The translations under genes and the position numbers were made by a program. The notes beneath the pieces are model-generated. The model searched no databases, was not told where the DNA came from, and saw nothing but the letters and a program-made list of their open reading frames with translations. Below, one piece after another: positions 2,345 through 21,957 of a stretch of DNA of 36,865 nucleotides (position 1 is its first letter; every line of letters starts with the position of its first letter). This stretch comes from Priapulus caudatus (taxonomy: Eukaryota > Priapulida > Priapulimorpha > Priapulimorphida > Priapulidae): NCBI RefSeq assembly GCF_000485595.1, contig NW_014577197.1, forward strand, positions 28,147 through 65,011, in the 5' to 3' direction.

Positions 2345-3120
2345 TTCGTAGTTAGCCGGTGTACGTGCAGCACGCAACGCACTTGTACGAGCACGACGCA
2401 CCCCACGCTGTACGTGCACACGCACGGACGACACGTGCACAAGCACGCACGCACGCCGTGTACAGTACACACGCACGCACGCAACGTGTACGGGGCACAC
2501 ACACAGCACGTATACGTGCCAAACAGGGCGACCACGTGCACACACACGCACGCACGTGGACATGCACGCACGCACGACGCACGCACGTGTCGTGCACAAC
2601 ACACACATGCACGCACCGGACGACTGTACGTGCAACACGCACGCACGGCACGCACCGTCGTACGTGACCACACGCACCGTGTACGGCTTGCGACAAACGC
2701 AAGCAAGCACGGCCTCCGTGTACGTTACACACGCAACGCAACTGCCACGTGTGTACGCTGCAACACACGGGCGCGAGCACGCACAGTGCACGTGCACGCA
2801 CGCAACGCACGAGACGGCACGCACGAACGCACGTGTACGTGCACGTGTGACATGCACGGCACACACGCACGCCACGCACGTGTACGTACACACGCACGCA
2901 CGCCACGCATACGTACACACGCACGCACGCACGTGTTACGTTACACACACGCACGCACGTGTACGTGACACGCACGCACGCACGCACGTGCACGTGCACA
3001 CGCACGCACGCACGCCACGCCACGTGCACGTGCACACGCACGCACGCACGTGTACGTGCACAAGCACACACGCACGTAGCGACGTGTACGTACACACGCA
3101 CGCACGCACGTGTACGTTTC
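2345..3120. repeat. (ACGC)n / ACGTGTACGTGCAC simple-repeat array
   Basis: About 780 bp built from acgc, cacgtgtacgtgcac and related words. Nearly all of it alternates purine and pyrimidine strictly. It generates long Cys/Val/Arg-rich or Thr/His/Arg-rich ORFs in most frames, which are artefacts of composition. Confidence 0.92.
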
Positions 3121-11110: not shown

Positions 11111-11451
11111 CAGGTGTAAAAATTAAATTTTGAACAAGGGAGTCCAACAAAAAAAAAAAGTCCCTGCCCTCAAAAAGAGGGAGTCCGCGGCAAAATGAGG
11201 GAGTCCGCAGTCTGAAGTTCAAAATTAAAGATATTAACAACGCATGTGCTTATTTTGAAGATTCATGCGGTTGCACGTCTGTTAAATTTTCTTTGGACAT
11301 TTGCTGGAAAAATATGGTAATTCCATGAGGCCGTGCTCTGGAATGAACTAGTTAGTATGGCAGAATTTTCAGGAAGTCACACAGACTCCTGCATATGTCA
11401 AATCAGGGAGTATTTAATTGACTCCGGACTCTCGTTAATTTCACACCCTGC
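11111..11451 (-). repeat. Dispersed repeat family 2, copy 3 (inverted)
   Basis: Ends gttaatttcacaccctg, the reverse complement of the family start, and contains gactcctgcatatgtcaaat and agacgtgcaa-type words on the opposite strand. Together with copy 2 it forms a large head-to-tail-inverted pair. Confidence 0.75.
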
Positions 11452-12259: not shown

Positions 12260-12814
12260 ATGCGAGTGCACGCTATCATCGCCGCTCTGCTCGCCTGCCT
12301 CGCCACATGCGTGCGGCTCTCCGTCGCCACCGGCGACCTCGTCCAGCGTCTGCAGGACGTCGTCGCCGCGGGCAACTACACGTACTTCCGTCTGAACCGC
12401 GCCGGCAGCGTGACGATGGTGCTGCGCTCGATGCGCGGCGACGCCGACCTCTACGTCTCAGAGTCGACGCTGCGGCCGGACTTTGCGTTCGAGAACCACG
12501 ACCTGCAGTCGGTGACGTGCGGCCTCGACTCCGTCACGATTCCCGCCGCGTTCCGCCGCCCCGTCGGCGTCGGCGTCTACGGACACCCGCATCATATGGA
12601 GAGCGAGTACTCGCTCGAGATCTACCTGTCGGACGATCGCTCGGAGCCGGAGTACGAGCGAGCGGAGCGCGACAACGAAGCGGGGTTCGCCGCGGCGACG
12701 CCGAAGCTGCCGTTGCCTGACATGCCGGCGTACGGCGAGAGCCATGAGGAGGAGTCGCTGCTGTGGACGATAATCGTCGGCGTGTTGAAGGTTCTATTCG
12801 ACGTGCTGCTCTAG
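12260..12814 (+). CDS. C6orf120: C6orf120 homologue (UPF0669 family secreted protein)
   Basis: 184 residues in one exon, stop at 12812-12814. Residues 1 to about 24 form a signal peptide (MRVHAIIAALLACLATCVRL, then SVATG). The rest matches the UPF0669 family throughout: NYTYFRLN (residues 39-46, with an N-glycosylation sequon at N39), MRGDADLYVS, the cysteine segment QSVTCGLDSVTIPA, FRRPVGVGVYGHP, an acidic linker, and the C-terminal EEESLLWTIIVGVLKVLFDVLL region (hydrophobic helix). Human C6orf120 is about 190 residues, so this looks full length. The ATG has a good context (gcagccATG), and a likely splice acceptor (tctgtttttcag) ends at 12204, so a 5' UTR intron is probable. The human protein is reported to be secreted and N-glycosylated; its biochemical activity is not established. 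The coding exon is much more GC-rich than its surroundings. Identification is by recall of the family, not by a search. Confidence 0.93.
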   Translation: MRVHAIIAALLACLATCVRLSVATGDLVQRLQDVVAAGNYTYFRLNRAGSVTMVLRSMRGDADLYVSESTLRPDFAFENHDLQSVTCGLDSVTIPAAFRRPVGVGVYGHPHHMESEYSLEIYLSDDRSEPEYERAERDNEAGFAAATPKLPLPDMPAYGESHEEESLLWTIIVGVLKVLFDVLL

Positions 12815-13953: not shown

Positions 13954-14877
13954 ATGTCGTCCGAGACGACGGACGCGCGGCGCCACCTGGCGAGCGTCGT
14001 CACGGCAACGGCCGCCTCGATGGAGGAGATACTGGCGACGGCGCGCCTCCGAGCCGCGGGATCCGTCGAGGAGTTTCTCGAGCGAGACTACGGCTGCATG
14101 GGCCGCGCGCTCGGAGTCTACCGCGACATGCTGGCGGGAGTCGGCTGCGCGACGCGGCGGCAGGCCGAGGACGCGTGGGGGCGCTGCTACGCAAACCGCG
14201 ACGTCCGCGAGTCCGTCGACGACCTCCTCGAGGTAGAGGGCGCCTGGAACGCGTTCCTGCACGACGTTGACGACCGCGCGCGTCGCCGCAGCAACGACGG
14301 CGGCGGCGACGGCGGCGGCGGCGGCGTCGAGGTCGGCGACCCGGCGCCGGGCGACGCGCGGCTCCGTGACGCGGGCACGCGCGCTGAGGTCGCGCTCGCC
14401 GACTACCTAGGGGGCGCCGCCGTCGTCGTCGTGCTGCTGCGTCACTTTGCTTGACTGCCGTGACGCGCGCACGCGCTTGCGCTCGCGCGCCGCCGCGCCG
14501 AGCTCGCCGCCGCCGGCGCCCGCGTCCTCCTCGTCTCGATCGGCACGACCGAGGCGGCGCGCGAGTGGCGCCGCCAGACGGCCGCCGACTTCGACATGGC
14601 GGTGAGCGAGGACCGGCTCGTCTACCGGCGCCTCGGGCTCGGTCGCTCGGCGTACAGGGTGTGGAACGTGGCGTCGCTGACGTACTACTCGGAGCAGATG
14701 GCCGCGGGAACGCCGCTGCCGGAGATGTTCCGAGCGCAGCGCGAGGACATCCACCAGAGCGGCGGAGACTGCGTCGTCGACAGGTCTGGCCGCTTGGTGT
14801 TCGTGCACCGCAGTGAGACGTCCGTCGACAGGCCGTCAGTGGACACGATCCTACATGTTCTGTCGCGCATCGATTAA
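13954..14877 (+). CDS. SELENOL: Selenoprotein L (SelL), thioredoxin-like with UxxU redox motif
   Basis: One open frame of 307 residues from ATG 13954 to TAA 14875-14877, interrupted only by TGA at 14452-14454 and 14461-14463. These read as U167-L-P-U170 in the context RHFAULPUR, directly after a hydrophobic strand (AAVVVVLLRHFA). That is where thioredoxin-fold AhpC/TSA-like proteins carry CxxC. Before it come a helical N-terminal region (1-115), a Gly-rich linker (116-124) and VGDPAPGDARLRD. After it come ELAAAGARVLLVSIGTT, the PLPEMF segment and GGDCVVDRSGRLVFVHRSET, typical of AhpC-TSA_2 domains. SelL is a known cytosolic selenoprotein family whose two Sec form a diselenide; its substrate is not established. 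A splice acceptor (ctttctttacag) ends at 13929, so a 5' non-coding exon is likely; the frame is open upstream but has no ATG. Strongly GC-rich exon. A double nonsense pseudogene is unlikely given the exact UxxU spacing, intact flanks and downstream SECIS-like hairpins. Confidence 0.9.
14452..14463 (+). other. Recoded UGA-N6-UGA: two selenocysteine codons (UxxU)
   Basis: tga ctg ccg tga in the SelL frame. The two UGA codons are separated by exactly two sense codons, giving the diselenide UxxU motif at the position of the CxxC redox centre. Reading through both as Sec joins two halves that belong to the same thioredoxin-like domain. Confidence 0.88.
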
Positions 14878-15333
14878 ACGCGAGAATCTCACGGCGCGCG
14901 GGGGCGGGGGTACTCCGAATTCGCTACACGTCCGTAGCTGCGCGAATTATGTTTGAATCGTTGTGCGGCTGCTTGCTATGCTCATTCGGAAGAATTCGTT
15001 CAGAACAATTGCTCAGGTTACGATCGACTATAGATGCTGTGTGATTATATTGAAGTTTCGGGGAACCGGGAAAGGGTGCTGACGCTATTCACAAATCACA
15101 TTTTCTGCTTTTTGCGGGTAATGTAATAGTCACAGGAGCATAGCTTGATCATATACCTGGCAGGGGGATTTTCTGAACCAACTATTAATAACTGAATGTT
15201 ATTTTAGAAGTTTTAATTAAGAAATGAGAGCAGAGGTAGTGTGATGGAAATTTGTTAAAATATTTATTCTATTATTTATTTGTGCTCCTCAACCCCCCTC
15301 CCCCGTGGCTATTGACCTGAATCGTGATAATAA

Positions 15334-15446
15334 CGTACACTAAATTTACGGAACTAACGACAGTTTGTGACGGCTGTCTTACCAAGGGTTTCATCCAATC
15401 TGACAGCTTGAAGATGCCTGTCCATATAAAGTAAATTTAGTGTACG
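15334..15446 (+). repeat. 16-bp inverted repeat enclosing SECIS element 1
   Basis: cgtacactaaatttac at 15334-15349 is the exact reverse complement of 15431-15446. The 81-nt interior contains the whole first SECIS-like hairpin. In RNA this would extend the SECIS into one long stem; in DNA it resembles the ends of a small foldback element. Confidence 0.75.
15359..15422 (+). promoter_or_regulatory. Candidate SECIS element 1 in the SelL 3' UTR
   Basis: All parts of a type II eukaryotic SECIS are visible. Helix I is GACAG (15359-15363) with CTGTC (15418-15422). An internal loop follows. The quartet is TGAC (15368-15371) opposite TGAA (15409-15412), giving tandem G.A/A.G pairs. Helix II is GGCTGTC (15372-15378) with GACAGCT (15402-15408), seven pairs including one G.U. 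The unpaired AA is at 15384-15385, 13 nt after the quartet, and an apical mini-stem GGG/TCC follows (15386-15388, 15394-15396). It lies about 480 nt after the stop codon. No covariance search was run. Confidence 0.78.
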
Positions 15447-15601
15447 CATACTAATTGCATTCAACAATGATAAAAGATGTGGTGGTGTAGTCATAGTAAA
15501 GAATGCTATTCACTCAATGCACTTACAAGACGATAGTGTTTGCTTAGAGCAACCATGTCTCTAAATGAAATATTTAAAAGACTTATAGGACTCGCGAGTT
15601 T

Positions 15602-15648
15602 TTGACGGTTGTCATACAAAGGGTTTGAGCCAATCTGACAGCCTGATG
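15602..15648 (+). promoter_or_regulatory. Candidate SECIS element 2 in the SelL 3' UTR
   Basis: A second hairpin resembles the first in sequence and shape. The quartet is TGAC (15603-15606) opposite TGAT (15644-15647), giving the canonical U.U, G.A, A.G pairs. Helix II is GGTTGTC (15607-15613) with GACAGCC (15637-15643), seven pairs. Unpaired AAA is at 15618-15620, 12 nt after the quartet, and a short GG/CC apical stem follows. Helix I below the quartet is weaker than in element 1. The shared blocks AAGGGTTT and CCAATCTGACAGC suggest a duplication, while substitutions inside helix II keep pairing. Confidence 0.68.
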
Positions 15649-15673
15649 TAAGTAATGTTCGTAATCCGTACAA

Positions 15674-15679
15674 ATTAAA
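15674..15679 (+). terminator. Possible poly(A) signal (ATTAAA) of SelL
   Basis: ATTAAA lies 26 nt past the second SECIS candidate, followed by T-rich DNA. I saw no AATAAA between the stop codon and this point, so a single 3' UTR of about 800 nt carrying both hairpins is plausible. Confidence 0.4.
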
Positions 15680-15776
15680 CTTGTTTATATTAATTTGATA
15701 AAAAAAAAACTAAACATGTGATGTATAAGTTACACTTCTTGCCTTTATTCTGTCAGAGCAGGAGTACATTATAGTA

Positions 15777-16192
15777 CAGTCCGACCTCCTTTATCCGGCC
15801 ACGTCGGGACAGGCACCCATCCGGATATGGGATTTGGCCGGATGTGAGAGTTATGCTCAAACACAGCATTTCTATGCAGTTCAGTAGGGTTTATGCATGG
15901 GATAATGTATTTACTCATTGCTATGATTATTTGTAACAAACTGTCGTGTTTTATGGTTTATATGAAATGGAAATAAAATGAAATAAAACAGAAATTTTAC
16001 TGGAGGCATAGCGGACAGCACACACACACGCACACGCACACGCAAACACACGTACGGTTGGTACATCGCACGAGTTTTGAGCGAGATTTTTAGGTGGAAA
16101 TGAATGAAAAACAGAGAACATGCACTGCGAGATCGCGGCCGGTTAATAGAGATTTCCGGATAACGGATGGCCGGATAAAGGAGGTCGGACTG
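15777..16192. mobile_element. pogo/Tigger-like non-autonomous element (MITE)
   Basis: Terminal inverted repeats start CAGTCCGACCTCCTTTATCC and end with the matching GGATAAAGGAGGTCGGACTG, flanked by TA on both sides (15775-15776, 16193-16194) as expected for Tc1/mariner-pogo insertions. The CAGTcc...TTATCCGG terminus is typical of Tigger/pogo elements. There is no transposase; the interior carries a short (CA)n-like tract near 16020-16045. It sits between the convergent SelL and Aven genes. Confidence 0.85.
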
Positions 16193-16340
16193 TACATGTA
16201 AATGGGAGTACAGTTTCTCTCTTGTTTATATCATCTTGTTACCATAATGCAGTTCATCAAGTTACATCACTTGTCACATTTGCAGAGTTTAAGGTTCTGT
16301 ACAGCGTAGATATTGGTTGATATTAGCAGACGTATGCACT

Positions 16341-20275: not shown

Positions 20276-21957
20276 TGAGTAACAAAATAGTATACAAAAA
20301 TAACCATTGGCATCAACAACATACATGTAACATGTAGAGTTGGTCAAATAATATATTTCAACTCTAGGCATGTCGGGGGAGCTTCTGGGAAAGGTTTTAC
20401 TTTCGTTTTTCTCCTCCCCAGTCTTCGGTACCCCCATGCATAGATCAATGCTGCCGCACATCCTCAAAGTTACAACTGCCTAGAATCTTTAAGTATATAT
20501 ACAGTTTACATTGCTTCTAGATATCTAACTGAATAAAAATAGTCAACTTTCTATGTAAAGAAAAGTAACGAATTCAGTCACGATAACCCCTGATAACCCC
20601 TGCGACATAGGAACTTATTATTATGCATTAAAACACTCATAACTTATAACGCATAAAAACACTCGGCTACGCTACATGCGGCATGCCGCAATCGATTTTT
20701 TAGACGGTCGCAAGTTTTTGTTCGTATGGCGAATCATGAGTTGAGGCAGTTCATGCCCTCAGCTCTAGACTTTTTGGATACCCCGTCAGAAACGGAGCGC
20801 ATTAGAATACGCTCCCGTTTACATGTCTGTCTAAACGCCGTTGCGATAACCGAAGTATTTCAGCATAATATGAGGGGAAAAAGTGCCGGTCCTTCCAGTT
20901 TCGTAGAGATGGTGGCCCGAGCAAAAACTTGGTGGCCTCGGGCCTCCGGGTCGGCACCAATTTCGAACGCTGTTAACAGGGATGAGATTCTTCCGCGGAA
21001 ATCCGCGGATTTGACAGTCCCAGGGGTCGATTTTGTGAAACGTCTAAATTCGTTGAGAAAATTGGGAGGGGGGTAACAATGTAACAATTTAAATTATATA
21101 TCCTCAACAGCACCTGACTGTAGACTGTAGAGTGTAGACAGTAGGCTGACAGCGAAGTATACAGTGTATCTGTTTTTGCGTACCAGAAAAGAAAATCCTC
21201 GTTCACAGGCTGCAGTAGAGGGGCAAACATTTGGGGTAGCTGATCACGTAACGACCATGCCTGGCCTGGGGGCCGGGTTTACATGTTGCTGCGTGCATGT
21301 TGTGTGCATGACTATGCACTGATTGTTCCATTCGCATTGTGTTTTTTTCATTCAAATCTCGTCGCAGCAAGGCAGCTTATGTCTGAGTAAAACAATGCAA
21401 GCGACGGGTGGAAACAGAAAAATATCATTATGTCTAGACATTTAATAAAAAATTTGCCCTATTTTCAGCCCCCTGATTTCCTATTATAGTTCGTTTGTTC
21501 CTTTTGACAACTTGAAAAGGTGATTCAAAGGTATCCTATAATGTGTTCAGAATAGCTTAGAATGCACCAAATTGCACCATTCTTTTAAAAAATTCCAGGG
21601 GAGCATGCCCCCGGACCCCCCTAGCATGGCGATGACCTACGGTCCTCCCATTGCTCGCTCCTCTGTTTGTTTGCTAATTAAAATTTCAGCTGAAAATTAA
21701 ATTATCCAATCTCATCCCTGTGTTAAACATCAAAACACTGTCCAAACCAAATTATTCATTTCACAATTAATGTCATGCAAAAATATCCAAATAGGCAGTG
21801 GTGTATGTATTATTTATGTTATCTCATAAATTATTTACTTGTCCATGTAAAGTCTTGGTATACAGTCCAACACCACATTATTACAGTCAAGTAATATTAC
21901 ACAGTTAAAGTTAATAAAATAATAAGATAATAAGATAATTAAAGTTTTTAATGTTTC
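20276..21957. other. Intergenic DNA upstream of NAA40; no supported gene
   Basis: Contains ataacccctg direct repeats near 20583 and a small + strand ORF at 20726-21076 overlapping repeat-like DNA. A fragment ggggagcatgcccccggacc near 21599 belongs to a class of dispersed repeat sequence. The NAA40 promoter should lie in the distal part. Confidence 0.35.

What the first reader, a model, noticed from the sequence alone, without database searches (positions are those of the whole stretch)
15359..15648. Two tandem SECIS-like elements in one SelL 3' UTR
Both hairpins have the UGAN/NGAN quartet, a 7-bp helix II, unpaired AA 12-13 nt above the quartet and a short apical stem. They share AAGGGTTT and CCAATCTGACAGC but differ in helix II in ways that keep pairing (GGCTGTC/GACAGCT versus GGTTGTC/GACAGCC). 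Published eukaryotic SelL genes were described as using one SECIS for both Sec; dual SECIS elements are otherwise best known from selenoprotein P. A two-Sec, two-SECIS SelL would be a new arrangement and could partition the two UGAs or raise processivity.
Basis: partly seen in the sequence, partly recalled or inferred. Interest (0 to 1): 0.92.

Follow-up and report, generated by a model that had tools for sequence, protein, structure and literature searches.

The report
Two SECIS hairpins after one SelL
An animal-like gene for selenoprotein L, a protein with two selenocysteines, is followed by two related copies of the kind of RNA hairpin that tells ribosomes to insert selenocysteine, where accounts I could read describe only one; the copies look real, but whether both work is untested.

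Summary
An intronless SelL frame (13954-14877) has UGAs at codons 167 and 170 (UxxU). Downstream lie two SECIS-like hairpins, E1 (core 15362-15411) and E2 (15597-15646), 43 of 50 bases identical, with flanks that do not align convincingly. Strict and energy scans find both; two or more hits occurred in 0 of 3000 and 0 of 4000 shuffled UTRs. With three mismatches allowed, a shared motif matches only here in the 385-Mb assembly. The first canonical poly(A) signal after the stop codon is ATTAAA at 15674, behind E2; variant hexamers lie between E1 and E2.

Against: Rfam SECIS_1 reports neither hairpin at E up to 10, though it has little power here: a GPx SECIS scores 23.1 bits, under the cut-off of 35. 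My strict scanner missed that GPx SECIS. E2 lacks a convincing helix I; helix II differs on one side only. UGAs 9 nt apart are unlikely to be partitioned.

Best reading: a duplicated SECIS, E1 complete, E2 probably auxiliary. Function and transcript structure are untested.

The parts
13954..14877 (+). SelL-like coding sequence, one exon, 307 residues with two in-frame TGA before the TAA stop
   Evidence: translation with TGA=U, U167 and U170; Pfam AhpC-TSA_2 3.6e-13; NCBIfam SelL_rel_redox NF040769 8e-34, 116.8 bits against a cut-off of 120; the only match in the assembly at E <= 0.01, 3 candidates scored
14452..14454 (+). first Sec-UGA (codon 167)
14461..14463 (+). second Sec-UGA (codon 170), giving UxxU
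15359..15422 (+). E1: SECIS-like element with helix I GACAG/CUGUC, 4/6-nt internal loop as counted, quartet UGAC/UGAA, 7-bp helix II, unpaired AA, apical stem
15334..15349 (+). 5' arm of a perfect 16-bp inverted repeat that extends the base of E1
15431..15446 (+). 3' arm of that inverted repeat
15597..15646 (+). E2: second SECIS-like element, 86% identical to the E1 core; core intact, helix I weak
15674..15679 (+). ATTAAA, first canonical poly(A) signal downstream of the stop codon
   Evidence: use not tested

Best explanation
This is a single-copy animal-like SelL gene whose 3' UTR carries a duplicated SECIS. Shown: the reading frame with two UGAs, two related hairpins with SECIS anatomy, and a canonical poly(A) signal behind the second. 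Inferred: E1, complete with helix I, is the main element that recruits SBP2 and eEFSec/tRNA-Sec to recode both UGAs. Inferred with less certainty: E2 arose by local duplication, lies in the same mRNA and acts as an auxiliary SECIS, a second SBP2-binding site that raises recoding efficiency, rather than serving one particular UGA.
For: UxxU frame open for 137 residues after the second UGA and matching SelL-related and AhpC-TSA_2 models. Both hairpins meet the SECIS descriptor; two or more hits in 0 of 3000 and 0 of 4000 shuffled UTRs. The energy scanner also finds the SECIS of the assembly's UGA-containing GPx gene, the only hit at its cut-off on either strand of that 10-kb locus. E1's helix I and internal loop (4/6) resemble those of the GPx SECIS (4/5). 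The E1/E2 similarity stops at the SECIS core, with flanks at or near shuffle level, and all 7 differences spare UGA, GA, AA and helix II pairing. Only these two matches to the shared motif in 385 Mb. A canonical poly(A) signal follows E2.
Against: Rfam SECIS_1 does not report E1 or E2, though it reports the GPx SECIS at E 0.35. The strict scanner that finds E1 and E2 does not find the GPx SECIS even with one mismatch, so it is no general SECIS detector. Neither E1 nor E2 has A before UGA (E1 G, E2 U), while AUGA prevails in most invertebrates outside sponges (PMC3473315 section 11) and is found in this assembly's GPx SECIS. Helix II is short, 7-8 bp. E2 has a weak helix I and an unremarkable extended fold. 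Variant poly(A) hexamers lie between the elements (TATAAA 15425, AGTAAA 15430 and 15495, GATAAA 15469, AATGAA 15564), and ATTAAA at 14873-14878 overlaps the stop codon. No transcript data; no orthologous UTR could be fetched; a short recent duplication is not excluded.
Confidence: 0.6

Rival explanations
1. E1 is the only working SECIS; E2 is a duplicate that still shows the core because it is young and is on its way to decay, comparable to human Sep15, whose upstream SECIS is reported as non-functional (PMC2874816 passage).
For: E1 has helix I and a 16-bp outer stem; E2 has no outer stem and only a weak helix I, and has U before UGA. A 7-substitution set that spares the core arises by chance in 3.6-4.3% of simulations.
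Against: Similarity ends at the functional core rather than at arbitrary edges; E2 has one more helix II pair in its fold and a slightly better inner hairpin than E1.
Confidence: 0.3
2. The two hairpins belong to different transcripts: E2 is the SECIS of another gene, or an alternative 3' end leaves E2 out of the usual mRNA.
For: No transcript data are available here; variant poly(A) hexamers lie between E1 and E2; an alternative poly(A) site between the two SECIS is known for human SelP (PMC5133445, passages read).
Against: No AATAAA or ATTAAA on the + strand between the one overlapping the stop codon and 15674. The list of ORFs of 120 aa or more shows none on the + strand between the SelL stop and E2; shorter ones and exons were not examined.
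Confidence: 0.07
3. Neither hairpin is a SECIS; they are a chance or unrelated repeat pair, and the true SelL SECIS lies elsewhere.
For: No Rfam SECIS_1 match; hairpin energies are ordinary; no A before UGA.
Against: Shuffle controls; no other candidate in the UTR in the energy scan at its cut-off; Rfam SECIS_1 is insensitive in this assembly.
Confidence: 0.03

Closest known systems
Selenoprotein L (SelL) of fish and aquatic invertebrates
   Same: Prx-like protein with two Sec separated by two residues (UxxU)
   Different: Passages of PMC3316567 and PMC3541580 describe one SECIS for both Sec; here there are two SECIS-like elements
Selenoprotein P 3' UTR with two SECIS
   Same: Several UGAs and two SECIS in one 3' UTR; vertebrate elements are separated by 334 nt on average (PMC3316567 passage), here 235 nt start to start
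   Different: SelP has many UGAs (10 in human) and, in human, one form I and one form II SECIS (PMC5133445 passages); here two close UGAs and two near-identical elements
Ciona SelW1 with two predicted SECIS (PMC2874816 passages)
   Same: A non-SelP selenoprotein gene with two form II SECIS in its 3' UTR, function untested
   Different: One Sec in that gene; two here

Membership tests
Selenoprotein L | Prx-like/AhpC-TSA domain related to SelL | tested here: met
   Pfam PF13911 3.6e-13 and PF00578 1.8e-12, both over cut-off; NF040769 8e-34 but 116.8 bits, just under its 120 cut-off, with C in place of U
Selenoprotein L | UxxU redox motif encoded by two UGA | tested here: met
   U167 and U170; 2 TGA inside the genomic match
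Eukaryotic SECIS element | UGAN/NGAN quartet at the base of helix II | tested here: met
   both elements
Eukaryotic SECIS element | unpaired AA 11-12 nt above the quartet | tested here: met
   both elements
Eukaryotic SECIS element | helix I below the internal loop | tested here: inconclusive
   E1: 5 bp with a 4/6 loop, met; E2: best is 6 bp with 3 G-U pairs and a 3/10 loop, doubtful
Eukaryotic SECIS element | match to a SECIS covariance model (Rfam RF00031) | tested here: not met
   no match at E up to 10 in 14850-15780. Controls: the GPx SECIS scores 23.1 bits against a cut-off of 35, E 0.35 in 4 kb; assembly-wide none over the cut-off with 150 of 3022 candidates scored, and the GPx SECIS not listed. 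Little power; SECISearch3 was not available
Eukaryotic SECIS element | drives Sec insertion / binds SBP2 | not testable with these tools
   needs an experiment
Two-SECIS 3' UTR (SelP type) | both elements in one mature mRNA | not testable with these tools
   only indirect: the first canonical poly(A) signal after the stop codon is at 15674

The most novel reading that the evidence does not exclude
A SelL gene that uses two working SECIS elements, the second kept by selection to raise double-UGA recoding across UxxU: a two-Sec, two-SECIS arrangement outside selenoprotein P.
Probability: 0.45. Interest if true: 0.62.

Novelty: new variant of a known kind. Interest (0 to 1): 0.5.

Why it matters
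Why selenoprotein P needs two SECIS elements is tangled up with its many dispersed UGAs. A small gene with just two adjacent UGAs and two near-identical SECIS copies would be a simpler system in which to ask whether SECIS number, rather than SECIS type or UGA position, sets recoding efficiency. It would also show SECIS duplication in a multi-Sec gene outside SelP.

Tried and rejected
Rejected: E2 as part of a dispersed repeat (no further copies found; the reversed-pattern control gave one chance match; the DNA search skips very common words). Rejected as SECIS: the 15193-15244 scanner hit (mostly G-U, lost in the energy scan) and the three assembly-wide RF00031 matches (one repeat family by eye). 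Rejected by inference: partition of the two UGAs. No use: phage collection, first protein search (none of 7992 scored), PDB (best E 0.0047), Rdx family in the assembly (none at E <= 0.001, perhaps split by introns), tRNA scan of four loci, Pfam on three other ORFs of the window, alignment of the GPx SECIS with E1 and E2 (gapped, not used), covariance model R1 from E1+E2, which in 76,854 bases finds only E1 and E2 and not the GPx SECIS. A second GPx-like locus on C805 (27.4 bits, no TGA in the matched exon) gave no energy-scan hit on its own strand. Not obtained because the genome search was busy: tRNA-Sec (RF01852), selD/SPS2 (TIGR00476), Sep15/SelM (PF08806). So one SECIS of this assembly (GPx) served as a control; SBP2, eEFSec and SelP were never sought.

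Limits of my scanners: the descriptors rest on recalled SECIS rules and were written after seeing E1 and E2; the -9.8 cut-off was set after seeing the GPx value; the shuffles do not correct for this. The strict scanner misses the GPx SECIS. Two other sites in the window reach the energy cut-off (11326-11364, 20983-21030), so five hits in 153,708 strand-bases include two unexplained ones. The flank test used simple letter shuffles; the downstream 60 nt scored about 2 sd above the shuffle mean, the upstream 60 nt did not.

Full report
The setting. The window lies in a 385-Mb unnamed assembly of 2952 contigs. It carries an intronless reading frame at 13954-14877 that is open if two TGA codons (14452-14454 and 14461-14463) are read as Sec, giving ...LLRHFAULPURAH.... 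The protein matches AhpC-TSA_2 (3.6e-13) and AhpC-TSA in Pfam and the NCBIfam model SelL_rel_redox at 8e-34, with 116.8 bits against a cut-off of 120. It is the only match in the assembly for this protein at E <= 0.01 (3 candidates scored), with two TGA inside. A two-sequence profile search found ten related proteins; the eight whose sequences I read begin downstream of the UxxU position, as expected if gene callers stop at UGA, though other reasons are possible. The neighbour at 12260-12814 is a UPF0669/C6orf120 homologue (6.7e-46), so I take the host to be an animal (inference; the species was not identified).

The hairpins. E1 (15362-15411) and E2 (15597-15646) are direct copies, 235 nt from start to start, 43 of 50 bases identical. 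Both have UGAC facing UGA(A/U), a helix II of 7 bp (8 in E2's fold), unpaired AA 11-12 nt above the quartet and a small apical stem. Outside these 50 nt the upstream 60 nt align no better than shuffles, and the downstream 60 nt lie about two standard deviations above the shuffle mean. Conservation that stops at the functional core suggests selection on both copies, although a very short duplication would look the same.

Chance. A strict descriptor scan of the UTR found both, plus a third, mostly G-U hit at 15193-15244. Among 3000 dinucleotide shuffles 29 had at least one hit and none had two. A second scanner that scores the inner hairpin found E1 and E2 only in the UTR and gave 3 of 4000 shuffles with at least one hit and 0 of 4000 with two. 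These descriptors were written after the hairpins were known. Over five sequences, 153,708 strand-bases, the energy scanner made five calls: E1, E2, the GPx SECIS and two others in the window (11326-11364, 20983-21030) that I cannot assign. Folding energies of the bare hairpins are ordinary.

Control gene. A GPx gene with an in-frame TGA lies on C98. About 50 nt behind its presumed stop codon (gene end read by eye) Rfam SECIS_1 reports an element at L010 2942-3005 with 23.1 bits and E 0.35, below the gathering score of 35. The energy scanner gives the same element as the only hit at its cut-off on either strand of that 10-kb locus, and its helix I with a 4/5 internal loop resembles E1's 5 bp with a 4/6 loop. 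A UGA-containing GPx with a SECIS indicates that the host decodes Sec; the tRNA and protein factors could not be searched. The strict scanner does not find this GPx element, even with one mismatch, because its helix II has internal mismatches. Rfam SECIS_1 reports neither E1 nor E2 even at E up to 10. It also puts nothing in the assembly above its cut-off (150 of 3022 candidates scored), does not list the GPx SECIS there, and its three listed matches look like one repeat family. The missing Rfam match is therefore a real negative result of low power.

Differences between the two. E1 has helix I and a perfect 16-bp outer stem. E2 has at best a 6-bp helix with three G-U pairs and a 3/10 loop, and its extended fold is no better than shuffles (108 of 200 fold at least as well). 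E1 has G and E2 has U before UGA, where most invertebrates have A and 12 of 21 sponge elements have G, the sponge SelL among them (PMC3473315, section 11 read). The two helix II differences are G-U to G-C and C-G to U-G, one-sided changes; random sets of seven substitutions spare the descriptor in 7164 of 200,000 (from E1) and 8636 of 200,000 (from E2) simulations, 3.6% and 4.3%.

One transcript? On the + strand between the stop codon and 16000 the canonical poly(A) signals are ATTAAA at 15674 and AATAAA at 15972 and 15982; a further ATTAAA (14873-14878) overlaps the stop codon. Variant hexamers between E1 and E2 are TATAAA 15425, AGTAAA 15430 and 15495, GATAAA 15469 and AATGAA 15564. The simplest mRNA ends just behind E2 and holds both. 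A MITE-like stretch with 28-bp perfect inverted repeats follows at 15774-16195. No expression data were available.

Not a detectable repeat. A 301-nt query of the region matched only itself, and a shared 24-nt motif with up to three mismatches matched only E1 and E2 in the assembly. Both searches have the limits that the tool states (common words skipped).

Literature. PMC3316567 (passages) says that the two Sec of SelL are inserted with a single SECIS and that SelP is unique in having two; PMC3541580 (passages) also gives SelL one SECIS. PMC2874816 (passages) reports two predicted SECIS in Ciona SelW1 and mentions two in human Sep15, the upstream one non-functional. PMC5133445 (passages) describes distinct effects of the two SelP elements. 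I also saw passages of PMC3473315, PMC2397514, PMC12936836 and PMC2375036 and a term search of PMC7539508 without a match. The searches, of which several list only part of their matches, showed no SelL with two SECIS in the listings or in the passages I read. The library lacks most subscription papers, and the paper that I recall as the original SelL report is not held.

Verdict. The arrangement is real at sequence level and is a new variant of a known kind. My estimates: E1 is a working SECIS, about 0.9; both work in one mRNA, about 0.45. The likeliest role of E2 is auxiliary, raising recoding of both UGAs together.

Noticed in passing
15774-16195: MITE-like stretch with perfect 28-bp inverted repeats at its ends (GTACAGTCCGACCTCC...), downstream of the SelL poly(A) signal.
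   Followed up: partly
15334-15349 and 15431-15446: Perfect 16-bp inverted repeat framing E1; it would form a long lower stem below the SECIS.
   Followed up: partly
12260-12814: UPF0669/C6orf120 homologue on the + strand upstream of SelL.
   Followed up: no
L010 1504-2994 (G000:C98): A GPx gene with in-frame TGA and an AUGA-type SECIS about 50 nt behind its presumed stop codon; between its exons lies a hairpin (2639-2728, minus strand) with sub-threshold Rfam miRNA matches.
   Followed up: partly
L012, L013, L014: Three copies of what looks by eye like one repeat family match Rfam SECIS_1 at 26.8, 26.2 and 23.1 bits, as well as or better than the GPx SECIS; probably false SECIS.
   Followed up: partly
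proteins P0002-P0007, P0010, P0011: SelL relatives from public genomes or metagenomes are recorded as proteins that start after the UxxU site, so they may be truncated selenoproteins; by eye six of these eight (P0002-P0007) end in a hydrophobic, membrane-like tail.
   Followed up: no
11326-11364 and 20983-21030: Two other + strand sites meet the SECIS energy descriptor; not tied to any gene here.
   Followed up: no
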